From Paenibacillus sabinae T27 (GTDB lineage Bacteria; Bacillota; Bacilli; Paenibacillales; Paenibacillaceae): a stretch of DNA of 64,000 bases. Each line of letters starts with the position of its first letter. Position 1 is the first letter of the stretch. Position numbers and translations under genes: made by a program. Under the pieces are notes generated by a model that ran no database searches, was not told the origin of the DNA, and saw only the letters and a program-made list of their open reading frames with translations. The stretch is taken from contig NZ_CP004078.1 of assembly GCF_000612505.1 (NCBI RefSeq), positions 1,848,001-1,912,000 on the forward strand, written 5' to 3'. Of this stretch, positions 5,651 to 54,102 are shown in pieces.

Positions 5651-7969
5651 TTATATGATTACAGGTATCCCTTGCGCAGTCACTTCGCCAAGTCCGTTCA
5701 CCGTGTACTCCTTGTCGTAAATCCGGATGGAAGCCGGGGTTTCGGTTTCGTTGGCGACCGTAACGGTTTGGTCGGTGACAGTTACCTTAAGCCGGGAACT
5801 GCGGAACATGATTTTGAACGAATACGACTTCCAGTGGCCCGGGTTGAACGGTTTCAGGATCAGACGGCCATCCTGGACACGCAGTCCGCCGAAGCCGTGG
5901 ACGATCGACATCCAGGTGCCCGCCATGCTGGTGGTATGGCAGCCGTCCTCGGTGTCGTTGTTGTAATTGTCCAGGTCAAGCCTTGAAGTGCGCAGGTACA
6001 TCTCGTAGGCCTTCTCCTTGTATCCCAGCTCGCAGGCGAGAACCGAATGGATGCACGGAGAGAGGGAAGACTCGTGAACGGTGATCGGCTCGTAGAAGTC
6101 GAAGTTCCGTTTTTTCGTCTCCAGGTCGTAGCGGTCGTTCAGGAAATACAGTCCTTGCAGCACGTCGGCCTGCTTGATATAGCAGGAGCGCAGAATGCGG
6201 TCCCAGGACCATTTCTGGTTCAGCGGCAGGTGTTCTTGGCCAAGCTCCCTGACCGGGATGATCTGCTTGTCGAGGAAGCCGTCCTGCTGCAGGAAAATGC
6301 CGCGTTCCTCGTCAGCCGGGTAATACATTTTGTCGATGATATCCTGCCACTTCTCCGTCTCGCTCTCCAGCAGATCCAGCTTGTCGACCAGCTCGGTATA
6401 GCGCGATTCTTCATTGTCCCGCAAATAGGCGAGCGCTTCGAGGGTATACTCCAGCGTCCAGGCGGCGATCCGGTTCGTGTACCAGTTGTTGTTCACATTA
6501 TTCTCGTACTCGTTCGGTCCGGTAACGCCGAGCATGACGTATTTGTCTTTATGCGGGGCGTAGTGCACGCGCTCTTCCCAGAAACGGGAGATTTCCGTCA
6601 GCACCTCCAGGCCGTATTGTCCGAGATAGGACTTGTCGCCGGTGTAGTTCACATAGTTGTAAATTGCGTAGGCGATCGCTCCGTTACGGTGGATTTCCTC
6701 AAAAGTGATCTCCCACTCGTTATGGCATTCCTCGCCGTTCATTGTCACCATCGGATACAGTGCGCCTTTGGTAAAGCCGAGCTTAAGGGCGTTCTCCTTG
6801 GCCTTTTCCAGATGCTTGTAACGGTAAATCAGCAGATTGCGGGCAATGGAGGCATCCGCGGTGCTGAGGTAAAAAGGAACGCAGTATGCCTCCGTGTCCC
6901 AGTAGGTGCTGCCGCCGTATTTTTCACCGGTGAAGCCCTTGGGTCCGATATTCAGCCGGTCATCCTCGCCGGTATAGGTCTGGTTCAGCTGAAAAATATT
7001 AAAGCGGATCGCCTGCTGGGCCGAAGGGTCGCCTTCAATAATAATGTCGCTTTCTTTCCATTTGTCCTTCCAGGCATCCGCCTGCTCCGTCAGCAGGGCT
7101 ACAAAACCGGCCTCCCTTGCCGACTGGAGAGCACTCTGCGCCGCCTCCACGAGCTGGCCCAGACCGTAGTTGCGCGAAGTCACGCTTGCGGCGTATTTGT
7201 AGACGACGACCTGCTCGCCCTGGTGCACCGGAACCTGAATGATATTCGCCACATACTTGTCGCGCAGAACCGGCTCGGCCTCGGCTTCCAGCTTCTCTCC
7301 GGCAACGACAATATCATACGCCATGGCGGTGGTCACATGAAAATCGAGCTTCTTCGTCTTCAGGGTCAGATAGCCCCCGCCGGGAAAGCCGTTCTTCTCA
7401 ACCTCATTCCAGAACTTCTCATCATAATTGGAATCCTTGTTCTTGATGTCCCCGTCCAGGTAGGGGGTTACCGTAATCGTTCCCGCAAAATTGAGCGGGG
7501 TGACCGAATAGCGGATCGCACCGATCTCCCGCCGGGTCATGCTTACAATTCGGATGCTTTCCACTTTAACTTCCTTCCCGTCCGCAAGGACGGCGGTGAA
7601 GCTGCGGGACAGCGTGCCTTCCTTCATGTTCAGCACCCGCCGAAATTCCGATACGGTGGAAGACGCGAGATCCAACGGAGTGCCGTCAATATCGATGTCG
7701 ATACCAATCCAGTTGGTGCTGTTCAATACTTTGGCAAAATATTCAGGGTAGCCGTTCTTCCACCAGCCGACCCGGGTCTTGTCGGGATAGTACACGCCGG
7801 CCATATAGCTGCCTTGAAGGCTGGGCCCGCTGTACTGTTCTTCAAAATTGGCGCGCCCGCCCATATAGCCGTTGCCCAAACTGAATACGCTTTCGGAAAT
7901 CTCCTGGGTTTGGGGATCGAATGATTCTTCAACAATGGACCATTCATCGACTTTTAAATATTGTTTCAT
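5651..7969 (-). CDS. mapA: Glycoside hydrolase family 65 maltose phosphorylase
   Basis: A 772-residue GH65 enzyme predicted to split maltose with phosphate into glucose and beta-glucose-1-phosphate in the cytoplasm. The N-terminal beta-sandwich begins with the family signature SVFSLGNGYMGGRANFEE; the (alpha/alpha)6 barrel carries STYWDTEAYCVPF and HNEWEITFEEIHRNGA, which contains the likely general-acid Glu; the C-terminus has a DGCHTTSMAGTW segment. Length fits maltose phosphorylases. Kojibiose and trehalose phosphorylases share the fold, but the neighbouring pgmB and the maltodextrin importer and GH13 genes favour maltose. It lies 52 bases behind pgmB and is probably co-transcribed with it. 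AAAGGAG lies 10 bases before the ATG. Confidence 0.88.
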   Translation of the reverse strand: MKQYLKVDEWSIVEESFDPQTQEISESVFSLGNGYMGGRANFEEQYSGPSLQGSYMAGVYYPDKTRVGWWKNGYPEYFAKVLNSTNWIGIDIDIDGTPLDLASSTVSEFRRVLNMKEGTLSRSFTAVLADGKEVKVESIRIVSMTRREIGAIRYSVTPLNFAGTITVTPYLDGDIKNKDSNYDEKFWNEVEKNGFPGGGYLTLKTKKLDFHVTTAMAYDIVVAGEKLEAEAEPVLRDKYVANIIQVPVHQGEQVVVYKYAASVTSRNYGLGQLVEAAQSALQSAREAGFVALLTEQADAWKDKWKESDIIIEGDPSAQQAIRFNIFQLNQTYTGEDDRLNIGPKGFTGEKYGGSTYWDTEAYCVPFYLSTADASIARNLLIYRYKHLEKAKENALKLGFTKGALYPMVTMNGEECHNEWEITFEEIHRNGAIAYAIYNYVNYTGDKSYLGQYGLEVLTEISRFWEERVHYAPHKDKYVMLGVTGPNEYENNVNNNWYTNRIAAWTLEYTLEALAYLRDNEESRYTELVDKLDLLESETEKWQDIIDKMYYPADEERGIFLQQDGFLDKQIIPVRELGQEHLPLNQKWSWDRILRSCYIKQADVLQGLYFLNDRYDLETKKRNFDFYEPITVHESSLSPCIHSVLACELGYKEKAYEMYLRTSRLDLDNYNNDTEDGCHTTSMAGTWMSIVHGFGGLRVQDGRLILKPFNPGHWKSYSFKIMFRSSRLKVTVTDQTVTVANETETPASIRIYDKEYTVNGLGEVTAQGIPVII

Positions 7970-47086: not shown

Positions 47087-47112
47087 CCAAGAGAGTCAGT
47101 AAAGCAAAAACT

Positions 47113-47182
47113 AACCCCAACGAAGCCATTGTCATCCGCACGGAAGAGGCGGGTTTAGTCAATCGCTTGTTGGGGTTTTTTT
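47113..47182. terminator. Terminator between the HAD gene and the ATP-grasp operon
   Basis: AACCCCAAC pairs with GTTGGGGTT and AAGC with GCTT beyond one bulged base; a seven-T run follows on the plus strand. Its loop is about 40 bases. Confidence 0.65.
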
Positions 47183-47207
47183 CTGCCGGAACGAAGGGTC
47201 TCGCCCG

Positions 47208-48338
47208 TCACTCCTCGACTTTCTTCGAGGAGGAGGGCGCCAGCTTCGTCCGGTAAATCCAGAGCGCGTATTCCAGCGGCCGCCTCAGCGCTTTGCGGTA
47301 GGTTTCCTTATCGCCGGCCCTGGAGAACACCTCGCGGGCCGGTTTGGGGTTAACCTCAAGGACATAGATCCTTCCTTCCCGGTCGATGGCCAGATCAAGA
47401 GCGAGCTCGCACAGGTCGCTGAAGCTATCTTCCAGATAAGCGGCGGCGTCCGTACCGAGCTTCTCGGCCGTTTGTATCGTTTTTGCCGCTTTCTCTTCGC
47501 TGCCGAGCCACTGCTTCAGCAGTATCTCCGCTCTAACCGCATGACCGCCGCCATGCAGATTGGAGGTCACGCTCCTGGCTGCTCCAACCCGGCCGGCGAT
47601 GCCGGTCATCGCCCAGTTGCCCTGGCTGTTCTTCTGAACGAGCATCCTGTAATCGTGGAACCGGCCGCCCGGAAGGCGCAGCGGGATGCCCTGCTGGACG
47701 AGAAAGCGGCCGCCGATGCACCACTGGCGGACGATCGACTCCAGCCGGGATAAGGAAACCCGGCGGGGCTGAATAATCTGGCGGTTAAGACGCCGGCCCT
47801 GGATGTCGAACATCCCGCGCTCTCCCTTCAGCCGCTCGATGCGTAGAATCCCTCTTCCGCCTGTGCCGTTAGATGGTTTGATGTAGACCACCGGATTCGC
47901 CCTGAGCATTCGGTGCAGGTCTGCCGAAGACTGATACAGCAGAGTATCCGGCAAATGCTGGCGGAAGCGGCCCTTTTGCGAGAACGTCTGGTGAATCGTC
48001 CATTTGTTGCGCAGCGGCCGGTTCAGGAAGGTGAGGTGGTTGTAACGCGAGCGGAATTGAAGCAGCTGCTGGAAGCGGACGCTGCGCTGAATGCGACACC
48101 GGTCGTATATCATGTCGGGAAAGCTCCGCCATTTACGGCTCCACTCTCCCTTTGCCGGGTCGAACACAAGCGCATAAATGCGCTGCTTCACGTTGTCGAC
48201 ATCCATCGGCGTGAACACGAAGACATCCAGCCCAATCTGCTTGCCTTCCGCGATCATCCGGCGGTACACCTGCTTTTCTTCCAACTGCCGGGCGTTATTC
48301 AGATACAGGGTCAGAATTCCCAGAACGGGTTGGCTCAC
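47208..48338 (-). CDS. yheC: YheC/YheD-family ATP-grasp protein (YheC-like), last gene of the operon
   Basis: A 376-residue ATP-grasp protein. It begins with VLGILTLYLNNARQLEEKQ, typical of YheC, and continues with the fold's parts: YIKPSNGTGGRGI (nucleotide loop), FLVQQGIPL, DYRMLVQKN and the metal motif YVLEVNPKP. ATP-grasp enzymes join a carboxylate to an amine through an acyl phosphate; the YheC/D proteins are associated with the spore coat, but their substrates are unknown. The start is a GTG that overlaps the stop of the GNAT gene upstream by four bases, so they are translationally coupled. Confidence 0.87.
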   Translation of the reverse strand: MSQPVLGILTLYLNNARQLEEKQVYRRMIAEGKQIGLDVFVFTPMDVDNVKQRIYALVFDPAKGEWSRKWRSFPDMIYDRCRIQRSVRFQQLLQFRSRYNHLTFLNRPLRNKWTIHQTFSQKGRFRQHLPDTLLYQSSADLHRMLRANPVVYIKPSNGTGGRGILRIERLKGERGMFDIQGRRLNRQIIQPRRVSLSRLESIVRQWCIGGRFLVQQGIPLRLPGGRFHDYRMLVQKNSQGNWAMTGIAGRVGAARSVTSNLHGGGHAVRAEILLKQWLGSEEKAAKTIQTAEKLGTDAAAYLEDSFSDLCELALDLAIDREGRIYVLEVNPKPAREVFSRAGDKETYRKALRRPLEYALWIYRTKLAPSSSKKVEE

Positions 48339-48877
48339 AGAGATTCACCTTCTTGCAGTAAAATGGGACTCCGGTCCCGCTGCGCGTCCGGTTCGGCGGC
48401 TTCTGCGAGCAGGAACCCGGCCGGGAAGGAGCGCAGGCGGAGAACCGGCGCGCCGGAGGCGCTCCGGGTCAGCGCCACGGCAGCCAAGCCGGCATTGAAG
48501 CACATCTTCAGGCCGGATGCATGATCCGGAGTCACACGGCATTCGAGCGTTCCGAGACGTTTCACCTGCTCCCGCATCAGGGAGGCGCCTATGCCTTTGT
48601 TCCGGTACAGCGGGTGAACGGCGATGACACAGGCCTCCTTGCCGTAATCCGTCACCAAGCTAAGGGCGGCAAGCTGGGTGCCGAGCTGATCGCGAAGCGT
48701 TGCCGTCAGCAGCGACGTACCTGGCGCGGATAGACGTCCCGGCGTCAGATCCGCCAGCGTTTGCAAGCATTCCGTTGGAATCCGCTGGCCGGCATGGCGG
48801 CGGAGAAAGGCGAGAAGTGCGCCCTGCTGCCGGCTCCACTGTATGGAGCCGGCGGCGTAAACAGAAGATATCCGCAT
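48335..48877 (-). CDS. GNAT-family N-acetyltransferase embedded in the ATP-grasp operon
   Basis: A 180-residue GNAT protein. The acetyl-CoA-binding motif A is ACVIAVHPLYRNKGIGASLM (about 82-101), preceded by a SLVTDYGKE strand and followed by a less typical C-terminus. The substrate is unknown. Its position inside an operon of amide-bond-forming enzymes suggests that it acylates their product or supplies an acyl-amine substrate (inference). It begins ten bases after the upstream ATP-grasp stop; the ribosome site AAAGGATGTG is somewhat distant. Confidence 0.8.
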   Translation of the reverse strand: MRISSVYAAGSIQWSRQQGALLAFLRRHAGQRIPTECLQTLADLTPGRLSAPGTSLLTATLRDQLGTQLAALSLVTDYGKEACVIAVHPLYRNKGIGASLMREQVKRLGTLECRVTPDHASGLKMCFNAGLAAVALTRSASGAPVLRLRSFPAGFLLAEAAEPDAQRDRSPILLQEGESL

Positions 48878-48886
48878 GCTGGCTAG

Positions 48887-50011
48887 TCACATCCTTTGCG
48901 GAAAGATTGCGATTTGGCGGTACAAATGTTGGCTGTATTGAATGATCCGTTCGAGTGACAGCCTCCGGATGTCCGGCTCATCGAATTTCATCGGACGGGA
49001 ATTGGCTTCGAAGAACCAGAGACCGCCTTTTTCGTCGACGCCCAGATCCATGGACATTTCGCCCAGCATATAGCCGGAAGCCCGCTCGATCTGCCGGGCG
49101 ATCAGCAGGGCCGTTCCGGAAACGCTTTTCAGGATGGATAAGGACCGTTCGGGGCCGAACATGGCTTCGAGCATGCTGGAGGGCTCTTCAACACTTCCGC
49201 CTCGGGGAACATGGGTCGTGATGCTGCGGGAGCCGGCCAGTCTGGCACCGATGCCCGTCATGCTCCATCCGCCCTTGCCGTTCTTTTGCACGAGCACGCG
49301 CAGGTCGAAAGGTCTTCCTTTGCACGTCGCAAGCTCAATCGCCTGCTGAACGATATAGCGCGAATCGCCCCGTTCCTTTCCGATGCGGGACCAGAGCCGC
49401 TCCACTGTCGCCGCCTTGTATGTGACGTTCTTCTTGCCGCTTTGAATCTGCAGCCGGTACGGCAGCTCACCGCCTGCGTGATAAATGACCCGCATGATGC
49501 CTTTCCCCGCCTTGCCGGTCTCCGGCTTGAGGTACAGGCTGGTGTGGGTCTTCAGCATGGCCGCCAGCGTTCGCGCGCTTCTGAGCCGCCGGGTAGCAGG
49601 CACATGCCGGGCTGTCGCATTTGAGCCTCTCAGCCATTCGAACAGGCTCCATTTGTTGAAAAAGTAAGGATTGTACAGCCGAATGCCCGGATACTCCAGA
49701 CATTCGGCGAGTTTGCGGGCAACTGCGGGTTTGGCTTCATCCTCGCGGGTCGGAATGCGATTGTATACGACTTCCGGCGGGGGAAGCTGGACGGAGATCC
49801 ATGATTTGCCCGGACCCGGAACGTAACCGTTAACATAGTGATTCCCCAGCCTTAGTTCTTTCACGGTGATCACATAAACGAGATAGCCGAGTTCCTTGCC
49901 GGTTCGAATAATATCGCGAAAGTTCTTATGATTGCCGCGGAATTCCCGGAACTTATCTCTGGTCGTTAGTATGGCGATGACGGGCTTTCTGTCGTCGGGC
50001 CGGATGTTCAC
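48887..50011 (-). CDS. YheC/YheD-family ATP-grasp protein (short form)
   Basis: A 374-residue member with IAILTTRDKFREFRGNHKNF at the start, YLKPETGKAGKGIMRV (nucleotide loop), YIVQQAIEL, DLRVLVQKN, a GARLAGSRSITTHVPRGG loop and the metal motif FFEANSRP. It lacks the N-terminal extension of the two long paralogues. The start is a GTG overlapping the stop of the next upstream gene, with GAGGGAT before it. Confidence 0.85.
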   Translation of the reverse strand: MNIRPDDRKPVIAILTTRDKFREFRGNHKNFRDIIRTGKELGYLVYVITVKELRLGNHYVNGYVPGPGKSWISVQLPPPEVVYNRIPTREDEAKPAVARKLAECLEYPGIRLYNPYFFNKWSLFEWLRGSNATARHVPATRRLRSARTLAAMLKTHTSLYLKPETGKAGKGIMRVIYHAGGELPYRLQIQSGKKNVTYKAATVERLWSRIGKERGDSRYIVQQAIELATCKGRPFDLRVLVQKNGKGGWSMTGIGARLAGSRSITTHVPRGGSVEEPSSMLEAMFGPERSLSILKSVSGTALLIARQIERASGYMLGEMSMDLGVDEKGGLWFFEANSRPMKFDEPDIRRLSLERIIQYSQHLYRQIAIFPQRM

Positions 50012-51381
50012 ATATCATCCCTCCTGCGGAACTTGCTGAGGTATAGGCAGTGCTCCAGTATATGCTCGATGGAGGCTTTGCCTTCAGCCCTCAGGGAAGG
50101 ATGGCGGAAGATGGACCGCCCGGGCTTGGCGTTTGCCTCGAACATCCAGATTTCTTCATTCTGGTCAATGCCAAGATCGAAGCCGATTTCTCCAAGCAGA
50201 TGGCGATGCTGGGTTTCCAGCGATTCCGCCAGCCGGATAGCCGTTTGCTTCGCCCGCTGCAGCACTTCGTCGGCTTTGGCTCCGAATACGCGTCCGAGCG
50301 CCTGCTGCGGGGTAAGGAGGGAGCCTCCGTTTTTCAGATGGGTCGTTACGCTGCCGCGTCCGGCCTTCTTCGCTCCGATTCCAACCACAACCCACTGGTT
50401 GCTGCCGTTCTTGTGCATGTGGAACCGGAAGTCGATCGGGCAGCCGTCGATTTCAATCAGCCGGATACCCTGCTGAACGACATAGCTCTGCAGAGAGCGG
50501 CCATGACGGGACTGCAGCAGTCGCATCAGGCTCTCAAAGGTTCCAAAACGAAGCAGCACGTTCTTGCCGCCCCGGCGATAGCGGGCGAAATATCCGCGTT
50601 TCGGCAGATAAGTCAGCCTGTAAATGCCGTGGCCAAGGCTGCCGGCGGATGGCTTGTAGTAGACGAAATGATGGCGGTCCAGCATATCTCTGATGAGCTC
50701 GGTATCGGGGCTGCTGTGCGTTTCGGGCACATGCTGGCTCGCAAAGCTGTCGTTTTCCAGGAGCCGGTAAATGTCGGATTTGTTGAAAAAGCTCCAGTTG
50801 AAAAACGGGATTTTCTTGCGGGTGAACCGTTCCCGGAGCTGGTTAATCGCAAGCGACGTCTCCGCCCGCCTGCTGGGCAGCCGGTTGTAGATGACATCGG
50901 GCAGCGGTACGATCTTGCGCTCGAACTTGCCGCTTTCCGTCAAAAAGTACCCGTTCACACGTTCCTGCTGCCAATTAATGTCCCGGGGCATGAACGCGAA
51001 AATATAGCACATGTTGCTGCCTTCGCGCAGCAGCTGCTTGATGAAGCCCGTTCGTGAACCGAACGGCTGGGTCGGAGAAGACGGGCCGTCGGACAGGACG
51101 CCCACGAGCGGGCCGATTTGCACCTCGTCGTTCTGCAGGTTCCTCAGGTAGACGCTGCCCGTTTTGGGCACCTTGATGGCGTTCTGAACGCCCGAAGCGA
51201 GAAAAAGATGTTTCCCGGCTCGCTTGATCGGCTTGATCACCGCCGGAATGGCGTCTTTGCCGAGTCGCAGCCGGATGTTCCTCTTCCCGGACAGCTTCAG
51301 GCTTTTCATCAGCGACCCCGATATATAGACGACTCTTTGGGGCTGCTTGGTGAAATGGACATTGCAAAATGTGAGACCCAT
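50008..51381 (-). CDS. yheD: YheC/YheD-family ATP-grasp protein (long form, YheD-like)
   Basis: A 457-residue long form. An N-terminal extension of about 95 residues, rich in short beta strands (VVYISGSLMKSL, IRLRLGKDAIPAVIK), precedes the shared core, which starts at IGPLVGVLSDG. The ATP-grasp core shows YYKPSAGSLGHGIYRL, YVVQQGIRL, DFRFHMHKN and MFEANAKPG. Family proteins are spore-associated with unknown chemistry. AAGGAGG precedes the ATG. It overlaps the following gene by four bases. Confidence 0.87.
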   Translation of the reverse strand: MGLTFCNVHFTKQPQRVVYISGSLMKSLKLSGKRNIRLRLGKDAIPAVIKPIKRAGKHLFLASGVQNAIKVPKTGSVYLRNLQNDEVQIGPLVGVLSDGPSSPTQPFGSRTGFIKQLLREGSNMCYIFAFMPRDINWQQERVNGYFLTESGKFERKIVPLPDVIYNRLPSRRAETSLAINQLRERFTRKKIPFFNWSFFNKSDIYRLLENDSFASQHVPETHSSPDTELIRDMLDRHHFVYYKPSAGSLGHGIYRLTYLPKRGYFARYRRGGKNVLLRFGTFESLMRLLQSRHGRSLQSYVVQQGIRLIEIDGCPIDFRFHMHKNGSNQWVVVGIGAKKAGRGSVTTHLKNGGSLLTPQQALGRVFGAKADEVLQRAKQTAIRLAESLETQHRHLLGEIGFDLGIDQNEEIWMFEANAKPGRSIFRHPSLRAEGKASIEHILEHCLYLSKFRRRDDM

Positions 51382-51423
51382 TTATGAATCCTCCTTAAGC
51401 ACCATTGATATCAATCTTCCGGA

Positions 51424-52554
51424 TCATCCGCTTAAGCTTTCGGCGCTTCGGGGAGAACGTCGCCGTGTCAGCAGCAGGTAGCGGGCGTAGGAAAGAGGGT
51501 ATTCCGCCGCGCGCCGCGCGGCGTCTTTGTCGCCCGTAATTGTAAATGCGGAGCGGCCCGGCTTGGAGTTGGCCTCGAGCAGCCAGATCCGGCCCCCGGG
51601 ATCGATGCCGAAATCGAGCCCAAGCTCGCCGAGACGCCCGCAGGCAGCCTCCAGCAGCGGCGGAAGAAAGGCGGCGCTAAGCTCCACCTCACGTAGAATA
51701 TCATCCGCGGCCCCGCCGTATTGCTTCCGTAAGAAGGAAGCGGGATGGACCGCGGTTCCTCCGCCGTGAAGGTTCGAGGTAAGCGCGCCGCTCGGGCCAA
51801 GGCGGGCAGCCATTCCAGAGAGCGTCCAGCGGCCGGCGCCGTCCTTCTGCATGAGTACGCGGACATCGAACGGCTGTCCGCCTCCGGTCAGCCGCAGGAA
51901 CGGCTGCATGATAAAGCCCTGCTTGCCGATAAAGCGGTCGATCCATTCAAGACCGCTCAGGCGGTCATTAAAGCCGCGGACGATCTCCCGGTTATCTCCG
52001 TCCCGGCCCTTTACGAACAGTCCTCCGGATGAAGTTCCCCGGAGCACGGCATGCAGGGTTCGCTTTCCGTGTGTGCCTGCCCGGGGCTTCAGAAAGACCC
52101 CGTCCCCCTGTTCGGCGAGCATTCGCTCCAGGCTGCGCCGGCCTGCATACCTTCTCGTCTCGGGCAGCAGGGAGGAAGCCCTGCGGCTGCGCCGCAGAAG
52201 TTCATATACCCTCCATTTGTCCGGCAGCCCCCTCGACCATACGAGACTGCGCCCCAGCGCATGCAGAGCCCGGGAGCCGTTTCGTCTTTCCTCCGGATTT
52301 TTGCAGAACATCCGGTTATACACAATGTCGGGCGCTTCGGCCGTCGCTTCGCGCCATTCTTCACCTTCGCGAACAAACCCTCTCACTGTCCTGCCGTCGC
52401 CTGAAACGCCATCGGGAGTGAAGACGATGACGCGCAGACCGTAGGATGGAGCGGTCCGGCACAGTACGCTGCAGAAGGCGGGTTCGGCCACCGGGGAACC
52501 TTTGACGCCCCGGCACGTCAGAATGCCGAGACAGCCCATTTCGGTCACTGGCAT
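51424..52554 (-). CDS. YheC/YheD-family ATP-grasp protein (short form)
   Basis: A 376-residue member beginning LGILTCRGVKGSPVAEP. The nucleotide loop is FLKPRAGTHGKRTLHAV, in which the usual GxGI is GKRT, a noticeable change; FIMQPFLRL, DVRVLMQKD and LLEANSKPG follow. It is very rich in Arg, Gly and Ala and more GC-rich than its neighbours. The altered loop may affect nucleotide binding. AAGGAGGACGCC precedes the ATG. A 42-base gap separates it from the gene downstream. Confidence 0.84.
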   Translation of the reverse strand: MPVTEMGCLGILTCRGVKGSPVAEPAFCSVLCRTAPSYGLRVIVFTPDGVSGDGRTVRGFVREGEEWREATAEAPDIVYNRMFCKNPEERRNGSRALHALGRSLVWSRGLPDKWRVYELLRRSRRASSLLPETRRYAGRRSLERMLAEQGDGVFLKPRAGTHGKRTLHAVLRGTSSGGLFVKGRDGDNREIVRGFNDRLSGLEWIDRFIGKQGFIMQPFLRLTGGGQPFDVRVLMQKDGAGRWTLSGMAARLGPSGALTSNLHGGGTAVHPASFLRKQYGGAADDILREVELSAAFLPPLLEAACGRLGELGLDFGIDPGGRIWLLEANSKPGRSAFTITGDKDAARRAAEYPLSYARYLLLTRRRSPRSAESLSG

Positions 52555-52564
52555 GGCGTCCTCC

Positions 52565-53932
52565 TTACAGTCCGGCCAAGTAGCGGCAGTACTGAATCAT
52601 TTGCTTCACGGACGGTCTGATTTTGGTGTCGTTCAGCGGAGTGTTATCATTCTTGGACGGCTTCGAATTTACTTCGAGCAGCCAGATCCGGCCGGATTGA
52701 TCCATACCAAGATCGATGCCCAGCTCTCCGAAATGGGCCGGAATATTGGCCTCCACGCCTTTGGCAATGGCAAGCGCCGCCCGGGGCAGCTGAAGATTTG
52801 CGCTTTCTTTGGCACCGGGAGGGATGGAGCTTTTACCGATCGCCTCGCGAACGGTGCTAAGGCTGCCGCCCCGCGCCAGATTCGAGACGAAATGGTTGTT
52901 CCCTGCGGTGCGGGCGACGATGGAGGTGACATTCCATTTTCCGGTGCCGTTCTTTTGCACGAGCGCCCGGAAATCAACCGGCCTGCGTCCGATTTCCATC
53001 AGCGGCAGCCCCTGCTGAATCTGGAATCGGGTGGTCTTCATCTTCGGCGCAACCGCCTGATACAATTTGGTTAGGGTCGGGTAGCTCTGCTTGCGGGTGC
53101 CCAGCGGAGTTGTGGACTGCAGCCGGTAGCCGCCGCCTTCTTCCCGGGAAATCCGCAGAATGCCTTTGCCGAGGCTGCCCCGGACAGGCTTCAGGAACAC
53201 GACCGGATAATGGCCGCACATTTTCTTGAGAATCGCAAACCCGCCGAGCAAGTGGGACTCCGGCAAATAACGCTGAAGGGAAGGGTCCCGCCGGAGCGCT
53301 TCGAACACCTCGCTCTTGTCGAGGAATTTCTCATTGAAAAAATGAGTGCCGTACCTTGATTTTACTTCCGACAAAAAATGCTGTACGCTAGGTTTATTCT
53401 CCGCCTTGCGCGTGGTGAGCCTGTTGTTGATGACATCGGCAATGGGCAGCTTCGATTGTTTCCAGCCTTCGTCGTATACCCAGCCCGTAATGGAGGAGCC
53501 GGTACTCTCCAGAGCTTCCGGGGTAAAGAAATAGACAAAGGCGCCCTGCGCATGGCAGGCATTCGTTAATTCCCGGCAGAACAAGGTGATTGGACCGAAC
53601 AACCTTTCAGGCCGCTCGGGATGCTCCCGGCTGACCAGCACGCCGATCAGCGGTCCGAGCCGAAGCGTCCGGCTTCCGGAACTGTAGGAGGCGTTCAGCA
53701 CATTACGCGCCTTGAATCCGGTCTTCCGCGCCAGACCCTCGCTCACGCGAAGATTGTCGGATCGGGGGACCGGAATGACGGTGACCTCCTGACGGAAAGA
53801 ACCGAAGGCAAGCAGGATTGGTCCGTGCGCCGGGATTTTGAGTTTTTTGATGAGCCGGTCGCCGAGCATGACGGCGTTCTCCTGCAGGATGCCCGAGTAC
53901 ACCGTATGGACCGGGATCTTTAGCTTTGACAT
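52565..53932 (-). CDS. YheC/YheD-family ATP-grasp protein (long form), first gene of the operon
   Basis: A 455-residue long form. The N-terminal extension (about 1-100; KIPVHTVYSGILQENAVMLG at the start) resembles that of the 457-residue paralogue. The ATP-grasp core starts near LGPLIGVLVSRE and has FLKPVRGSLGKGILRI, FQIQQGLPL, DFRALVQKN and LLEVNSKPS. The ATG at 53932 is preceded by AAGGAG; nine extra upstream codons have no ribosome site. It heads the six-gene leftward operon and is divergent from the YlbF/YheA-type gene. Confidence 0.87.
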   Translation of the reverse strand: MSKLKIPVHTVYSGILQENAVMLGDRLIKKLKIPAHGPILLAFGSFRQEVTVIPVPRSDNLRVSEGLARKTGFKARNVLNASYSSGSRTLRLGPLIGVLVSREHPERPERLFGPITLFCRELTNACHAQGAFVYFFTPEALESTGSSITGWVYDEGWKQSKLPIADVINNRLTTRKAENKPSVQHFLSEVKSRYGTHFFNEKFLDKSEVFEALRRDPSLQRYLPESHLLGGFAILKKMCGHYPVVFLKPVRGSLGKGILRISREEGGGYRLQSTTPLGTRKQSYPTLTKLYQAVAPKMKTTRFQIQQGLPLMEIGRRPVDFRALVQKNGTGKWNVTSIVARTAGNNHFVSNLARGGSLSTVREAIGKSSIPPGAKESANLQLPRAALAIAKGVEANIPAHFGELGIDLGMDQSGRIWLLEVNSKPSKNDNTPLNDTKIRPSVKQMIQYCRYLAGL

Positions 53933-54102
53933 CGTGGATCTCCTTCCGGTAGGCAGCATGATGCCGGCTGTTTCACAGCTGAGGTCTTCATATCATCCAT
54001 CATATGGAGTCATACGCCCCTTGGTGATTGACCCATCTGCCGAAAGGTCCCTTATTCACAAGGGGGAAGGGGTCTAACAATACTTTTAGGAGGAACCCAA
54101 AT

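What the first reader, a model, noticed from the sequence alone, without database searches (positions are those of the whole stretch)
47208..53932. Operon of five YheC/YheD-type ATP-grasp paralogues plus a GNAT acetyltransferase
Sequence: six tight leftward genes (gaps 10-42 bases or 4-base overlaps). Five encode ATP-grasp proteins with the same order of motifs (KP..G..G.GI, QQ.I.L, D.R.L.QKN, E.N.KP) but clearly diverged; two have an extra 95-100-residue N-terminal beta-rich domain. One (51424-52554) has lost the GxGI form of the nucleotide loop. Known: B. subtilis has only yheC and yheD, linked to spores, with unknown substrates; ATP-grasp ligases make amide bonds. Inference: the set may build a stepwise peptide or peptide-like modification, capped or acylated by the GNAT protein, on or in the spore. 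The divergent YlbF/YheA gene is a conserved neighbour.
Basis: partly seen in the sequence, partly recalled or inferred. Interest (0 to 1): 0.75.

Follow-up and report, generated by a model that had tools for sequence, protein, structure and literature searches.

The report
Ancient sporulation operon of ATP-grasp ligases
Five related ATP-using enzymes and a small acetyltransferase-like protein are encoded side by side in an old gene set of spore-forming bacteria, probably switched on late in the mother cell to modify the spore surface; Bacillus-type relatives keep only two of them, and in some Paenibacillus one gene is cut in half by a mobile element.

Summary
In detail: six tight leftward genes, five PF14398 (YheC/YheD) ATP-grasp proteins and one GNAT-like protein. 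It is not peculiar to this genome. The order A5-A4-A3-A2-(GNAT)-A1 is largely kept across the order, and the paralogues form five clades that each include members from outside it. The Bacillus-type yheC-yheD pair falls with A4 and A3, so it looks like a reduced remnant.

The spore link is supported from several sides. A sister genus lacking SpoIVA and SpoIIGA (0 of 16) has an empty site at this locus in 16 of 16. A conserved element, CACC-N16-CATATGAT, close to a sigma-K promoter, precedes A5. A1 is split in 7 of the 99 same-genus genomes with a match; the same 7 carry a near-identical serine recombinase absent from the other 93 searched. In six examined, joining the halves in silico restores a 376-residue A1.

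All five keep the ATP-grasp catalytic residues, so enzymes are likelier than structural proteins. A stepwise peptide product is untested. The GNAT is present in only 71 of 115 loci, which argues against an obligatory capping step.

The parts
52565..53932 (-). A5: PF14398 ATP-grasp protein with extra N-terminal domain, first gene of the operon (ATG at 53932 behind AAGGAGAT)
   Evidence: 259.4 bits; sequence, RBS; own clade of 24 rows, SH-aLRT 100
51424..52554 (-). A4: PF14398 ATP-grasp protein with altered glycine loop; groups with the Bacillus-type YheC
   Evidence: 218.6 bits; G252 lost, other catalytic columns kept; clade of 24 rows, support 91
50008..51381 (-). A3: PF14398 ATP-grasp protein with extra N-terminal domain; the most conserved of the five; groups with the Bacillus-type YheD
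   Evidence: 268.3 bits; clade of 28 rows, support 98
48887..50011 (-). A2: PF14398 ATP-grasp protein
   Evidence: 260.2 bits; clade of 26 rows, support 99
48335..48877 (-). GNAT-like acetyltransferase, often lost in relatives
   Evidence: PF00583 21.1 bits, cut-off 20.7
47208..48338 (-). A1: PF14398 ATP-grasp protein, last gene; intact here, split by mobile elements in seven same-genus genomes
   Evidence: 255.5 bits; clade of 25 rows, support 99
53999..54027 (-). Conserved promoter-like element TCACC-N16-CATATGAT upstream of A5, sigma-K-like
   Evidence: AC 17 nt before CATA in 104 of 106 distinct upstream regions anchored on CATATGAT; the only exact match in the genome
54103..54447 (+). Divergent YlbF/YheA-type gene, conserved neighbour but not part of the transcription unit
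   Evidence: PF06133 94.4 bits; 99 of 115 loci

Best explanation
The six genes form one operon that is dedicated to sporulation and probably transcribed late in the mother cell. It encodes five non-redundant, catalytically competent ATP-grasp ligases (A4 the most altered) and an accessory GNAT. They most likely make or attach an amide-linked small molecule or peptide-like modification of the spore coat or outer layer. Shown by sequence: operon layout, five old orthologous groups, intact catalytic residues, co-loss with sporulation markers, a conserved promoter-like element, interruption of A1 by recombinase-bearing elements. Inferred: sigma-K control, enzymatic amide-bond formation, spore-surface target, rejoining of A1 in the mother cell.
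For: Gene order A5-A4-A3-A2-(GNAT)-A1 is largely kept in the 56 fetched loci of the order and in the 80 named loci, whose listed titles are mostly Paenibacillus. Five clades, each with members from outside the order; the Bacillus-type pair (L134, L135) sits in A4 and A3. K201, K243, D317, R319, E398, D402 and N417 are 100% conserved in all five groups, K324 95-100%, E415 98-100%; 117 to 129 sequences per group. A sister genus in the same family: 0 of 16 with SpoIVA, 0 of 16 with SpoIIGA, and HAD-YlbF-SpxR-like adjacent with no operon gene between in 16 of 16. Class survey of 299 genomes: 189 have both PF14398 and SpoIVA, 11 PF14398 only, 19 SpoIVA only, 80 neither. Promoter-like element. A1 split in 7 of 99, with core repeats, in-frame joining in 6 of 6 examined, the same recombinase in exactly those 7 of 100, and purifying selection on the distal half. 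In B. subtilis yheC and yheD are sigma-E genes stimulated by SpoIIID (PMC517825), and YheD forms a SpoIVA-dependent shell around the spore (PMC7911427).
Against: No expression, localisation or chemistry could be tested. B. subtilis yheCD is reported as sigma-E, not sigma-K; a scan with a recalled sigma-E consensus gave no excess here (40 of 123 upstream regions at score 11 or more, about 51 expected from shuffles), and the -10 has G where the recalled sigma-K consensus has A in 82%. PF14398 is not strictly tied to spores: 11 of 299 genomes have it without SpoIVA and 19 have SpoIVA without it, and the association is not corrected for phylogeny. Eight of 16 genomes of the non-sporulating genus keep other PF14398 proteins, and the window genome has four further copies outside the operon. 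YheD was seen only to self-interact, which also fits a structural role. Selection on split A1 is somewhat relaxed (median dN/dS 0.167 against 0.076 for intact A1; A2 in the same genomes 0.100 against 0.060).
Confidence: 0.65

Rival explanations
1. The five proteins are chiefly structural coat proteins that kept an ATP-grasp fold; the ATP site serves assembly or polymerisation and no small molecule is made.
For: B. subtilis YheD encases the forespore, depends on SpoIVA and interacts strongly with itself (PMC7911427 and PMC7769602, passages). A4 has a degenerate glycine loop.
Against: The metal and phosphate residues stay fixed over 117-129 sequences in each of five groups, including D317, R319, E398, D402 and N417, which is more than ATP binding for assembly would seem to need.
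Confidence: 0.2
2. The five paralogues are parallel isozymes with different carboxylate or amine substrates, not successive steps of one pathway.
For: Each group stays distinct and is kept nearly one to one (A2 in 115, A4 in 113, A5 in 113, A1 in 110 of 115 loci; four of the five loci without A1 are split A1). Subsets survive: Bacillus-type A3+A4 only, L046 and L053 without A4, L048 without A5.
Against: Strict co-operonic order over a wide span is more usual for a joint product (inference).
Confidence: 0.4
3. The operon acts in general cell-envelope or metabolite chemistry and its link to spores is phylogenetic coincidence.
For: PF14398 occurs in 11 of 299 genomes without SpoIVA, and the Pfam controls ring in E. 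coli, Synechococcus and archaea, in four of five over the cut-off.
Against: Clean absence of exactly this operon, with flanking genes kept, in 16 of 16 genomes of a genus without SpoIVA and SpoIIGA; 25 of 25 sampled genomes of the other three genera of the family have SpoIVA and strong PF14398 matches.
Confidence: 0.1

Closest known systems
B. subtilis yheC-yheD (YheC/YheD, PF14398)
   Same: Same Pfam family; A3 and A4 group with the Bacillus-type pair, which also lies near a 117-aa YlbF-type gene.
   Different: Five genes plus GNAT here against two; the promoter-like element looks sigma-K-like here, while yheCD is reported as sigma-E plus SpoIIID. That L134/L135 are the B. subtilis-type locus is inferred from layout and recalled gene lengths.
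R2K ATP-grasp plus GNAT operons (PMC4431377)
   Same: Several ATP-grasp ligases and a GNAT in one operon, with proposed ligation then capping (passages).
   Different: Different ATP-grasp clade; the text holds no mention of YheC or spores.
yheCD-like gene between gyrB and gyrA of paenibacilli (Iiyama 2014, seen only as cited in PMC5627462)
   Same: PF14398; a copy lies at 6742-7656 of the chromosome here.
   Different: A separate gene outside the five clades of the operon.
Sporulation-gene intervening elements: skin/sigK, SPbeta/spsM (PMC4191935), gin/gerE (PMC5595907), yin/yabG (PMC10747680)
   Same: Large serine recombinase, short core repeat, host gene split, precise joining restores the frame.
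   Different: New target gene (A1); cargo differs (pectin-use genes in G031; anti-repressor in G030; GerA gene in G029). Excision has not been shown. It lies in relatives, not in the window.

Membership tests
PF14398 YheC/YheD ATP-grasp | Profile match above the curated cut-off | tested here: met
   218.6-268.3 bits in all five, cut-off 26.8
PF14398 YheC/YheD ATP-grasp | Intact ATP-grasp catalytic residues | tested here: met
   95-100% conserved in five groups; only the A4 glycine loop (G252, I253) degenerates. Assignment of columns to ATP and metal binding is recalled from other ATP-grasp enzymes; no structure could be made
PF14398 YheC/YheD ATP-grasp | Orthology with B. subtilis YheC and YheD | tested here: inconclusive
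   L134/L135 fall in A4 and A3, A4 on a long branch; B. subtilis itself was not in the tree
GNAT acetyltransferase | Pfam cut-off reached | tested here: inconclusive
   PF00583 21.1 bits (cut-off 20.7) reached; PF13508 25.6 (cut-off 27) not reached
GNAT acetyltransferase | Acetyl-CoA loop R/Q-x-x-G-x-G/A (recalled motif) | tested here: inconclusive
   Window has RNKGIGA; in 52 aligned proteins R92 and G97 are invariant but the first G varies
Sigma-K promoter | AC-N17-CATANNNTA (letters recalled; layout of 5-nt and 10-nt elements with 15 nt between from PMC517825) | tested here: inconclusive
   Spacing and CATANNNT fit in 104 of 106; last position G in 82%. Full CATANNNTA in L137, L139 and L140
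Sigma-K promoter | Transcription start and sigma-K dependence | not testable with these tools
   needs RNA data
Sporulation-gene intervening element | Host gene split at a core repeat by an element with a large serine recombinase | tested here: met
   Six genomes: core exact (GTGTTTAC) in G015, G026, G030, G031, one mismatch in G029 and G036; recombinase domains found in the four run, the other two 88% and 90% identical to the G030 one
Sporulation-gene intervening element | Excision in the mother cell during sporulation | not testable with these tools
   only in-silico joining

The most novel reading that the evidence does not exclude
An ancient late mother-cell operon makes an undescribed amide-linked modification of the spore with five successive or parallel ATP-grasp ligases; B. 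subtilis keeps only a reduced two-gene remnant; and in part of Paenibacillus the last ligase gene is rebuilt by mother-cell excision of a recombinase-bearing element that has taken this gene as its attachment site.
Probability: 0.4. Interest if true: 0.78.

Novelty: new variant of a known kind. Interest (0 to 1): 0.6.

Why it matters
YheC and YheD have been known as spore-linked proteins of unknown function for twenty years, and the two-gene B. subtilis locus may be the wrong place to look. The fuller operon, with its intact active sites and a natural clean loss in a genus without SpoIVA and SpoIIGA, offers a tractable system: delete it in a sporulating Paenibacillus and compare spore-surface chemistry. 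The A1-targeting elements add a candidate new case of developmental gene rearrangement and, if excision is shown, an independent sign that A1 is needed in the mother cell.

Tried and rejected
A scan with a recalled sigma-E consensus gave no excess over shuffles and was dropped in favour of the directly conserved element. A sigma-70 scan found one promoter-like site in the whole stretch, at 54055-54084 on the plus strand, against 3.0 expected, and 8 terminator-like sites against 9.3 expected: no information. The idea that the set is a recent expansion in this genome was rejected by the tree. The idea that A1 is simply deleted in six loci was rejected when its distal half was found 18-71 kb away. 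In one search the G029 join used a wrong core occurrence and gave a false 476-aa protein; one search repeated it with the one-mismatch core and gave 376 aa. Seven of 123 upstream regions lacked the CATATGAT anchor (L137, L139, L140, L141, L161, L184, L188); three of these have a CACC-N16-CATANNATA form, and the printed sequence for L161 suggests a misplaced start. L028 and L038 have fragmented operon genes and were left out of the catalytic-residue count. The 2x2 table rests on lists compared by eye and typed into (the totals agree: 189 both ways). The genome search scored at most 8 or 9 candidates per genome in the class surveys, so copy numbers there are lower bounds. Of the PF14398 proteins left in the sister genus only the ~700-aa ones of three genomes were put on the tree.
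Full report
What is there. Six leftward ORFs lie at 47208-53932: A5, A4, A3, A2, GNAT, A1 in reading order, with gaps of 9 to 42 bases or 4-base overlaps. Five match PF14398 at 218.6-268.3 bits (cut-off 26.8) and the sixth is a weak GNAT. The genome has nine PF14398 matches, four of them elsewhere.

Not a local oddity. All 60 relatives searched have PF14398, with 6 to 18 matches each. Among 56 fetched loci of the order (11 families) the order A5-A4-A3-A2-(GNAT)-A1 is largely kept; exceptions include L046 and L053 (no A4), L048 (no A5), L054 and L062 (no A1), six loci with truncated A1, and fragmented genes in L028 and L038. The same holds for 80 named loci found with an A3 profile, a list cut at the best 80. 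After removal of duplicates, 115 loci of 12 kb or more hold A3 by choice, A2 in 115, A4 in 113, A5 in 113, A1 in 110, YlbF in 99 and the GNAT in 71. The counts include the window.

Age. A tree of 137 domains (quick maximum-likelihood, SH-aLRT only) gives five clades: A1 25 rows (99), A2 26 (99), A3 28 (98), A4 24 (91), A5 24 (100); each holds members from the order and from outside it. The Bacillus-type pair of L134/L135 (363/371 and 452/453 aa, beside a 377-aa gene and a 117-aa YlbF-type gene) falls in A4 and A3, A4 on a long branch. So two genes look like a remnant of a larger old set. The GNAT is found next to A2 in five of eight loci outside the order (L137-L141; not L134-L136), so it is old but often lost. 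The four further copies of the window genome fall outside the five clades.

Enzymes or scaffolds. Columns K201, K243, D317, R319, E398, D402 and N417 (A3 numbering) are invariant in all five groups; K324 is 95-100% and E415 98-100% (A1 117, A2 128, A3 129, A4 124, A5 123 sequences; fragmented L028 and L038 left out). Only A4 departs: G252 is R in 36%, G in 26%, N in 14%, and I253 is mostly T. The Bacillus-type YheC copies have D at E415, A at D406 and S at G353. That these columns bind ATP and metal is by recalled analogy with other ATP-grasp ligases. Weak cross-matches are to glutathione synthetase, RimK, MptN and tubulin-tyrosine-ligase families.

Link to spores. (1) In 299 genomes of the class 189 have PF14398 and SpoIVA, 11 PF14398 only, 19 SpoIVA only, 80 neither (not corrected for phylogeny). 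(2) A genus of the same family has SpoIVA in 0 of 16 and SpoIIGA in 0 of 16. In 16 of 16 the HAD, YlbF and SpxR-like neighbours lie side by side with no operon gene between. Eight of 16 keep other PF14398 proteins, at 200 bits or less; those of three genomes that were put on the tree lie outside the five clades. The 25 sampled genomes of the other three genera of the family all have SpoIVA. (3) Of 123 upstream regions of A5, 106 distinct ones hold CATATGAT with at most one mismatch, and in 104 of these AC stands exactly 17 nt before it. The element is kept in families where no YlbF was found (for example L046, L049, L055, L058), so it belongs to the operon. Three loci outside the order show CACC-N16-CATANNATA (L137, L139, L140) and L138 a near form. 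The layout (5-nt element, 15 nt, 10-nt element) fits the sigma-K legend of PMC517825 (passages); the consensus letters are recalled. In B. subtilis yheC and yheD are reported under sigma-E with SpoIIID stimulation, so timing may differ.

A split gene in relatives. In G015, G026, G029, G030, G031 and G036 only the first 43-44 codons of A1 are at the operon, and residues 37/39 to the end lie 18-71 kb away on the same strand. Among 100 genus genomes, 99 have an A1 match and 7 are split (the six plus G421, whose 5' half was not looked at); G402 has a full A1 plus an extra distal copy. The halves overlap in GTGTTTAC, exact in four and with one mismatch in G029 and G036. Joined there, six of six give 376 residues. 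A 520-aa large serine recombinase (domains found in the four proteins run) lies in each of the six, 86-98% identical to each other. At 88% or more it occurs in exactly the seven split genomes of 100; four others have relatives of 48-54%. It abuts the distal half (4-10 bp) in G030, G036 and G421, but not in the other four. Cargo differs: pectin-use genes in G031, a phage anti-repressor in G030, a GerA gene in G029. dN/dS of the distal halves has a median of 0.167 (15 pairs) against 0.076 for intact A1 (34 pairs); A2 of the same genomes gives 0.100 against 0.060: relaxed a little, still purifying. Such elements are known in other sporulation genes (PMC4191935, PMC5595907, PMC10747680, passages), almost always mother-cell genes (PMC6957869, passage).

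What is in print. Searches for YheC/YheD with ATP-grasp, spore, spore coat or Paenibacillus and for intervening elements found no report of the five-gene set or of an A1-type element in the held library; the four element papers hold no mention of Paenibacillus or yheC in the main text. Iyer 2009, which may have discussed the family, was not held; that Pfam describes PF14398 as linked to spore wall and capsule is recalled.

Verdict. A real, old, sporulation-linked operon of probable ligases; the chemistry is open.

Noticed in passing
L024, L034, L036, L037, L038, L043; L222-L232: A1 split by 18-71 kb elements with a shared large serine recombinase; cargo ranges from pectin-use genes to phage-like genes and a GerA germination gene.
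   Followed up: yes
L068:6742-7656 (chromosome position 6742-7656): A PF14398 copy between a 653-aa and an 850-aa ORF, probably the gyrB-gyrA interval gene cited from Iiyama 2014; the flanking genes were not identified by a search.
   Followed up: partly
L069:5146-5808 (chromosome 4226085-4226801): A PF14398 copy with one in-frame TAA inside the match, possibly decayed.
   Followed up: no
G402:C1:2479747-2487778: A full A1 plus a second distal A1 copy about 6 kb away, possibly a relic of an element that carries its own 3' end of A1.
   Followed up: no
L100-L105: In the genus without SpoIVA, about 700-aa proteins with two PF14398 domains in tandem.
   Followed up: partly
L028: A2, A3 and A4 each read as two ORFs in one same-genus genome; decay or assembly error not separated.
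   Followed up: no
window 47095-47190: Inverted repeat AACCCCAAC/GTTGGGGTT with a long loop between the convergent ends of A1 and the HAD gene, followed by AGTTTTT on the minus strand; possible terminator, missed by the scan because of its long loop.
   Followed up: no
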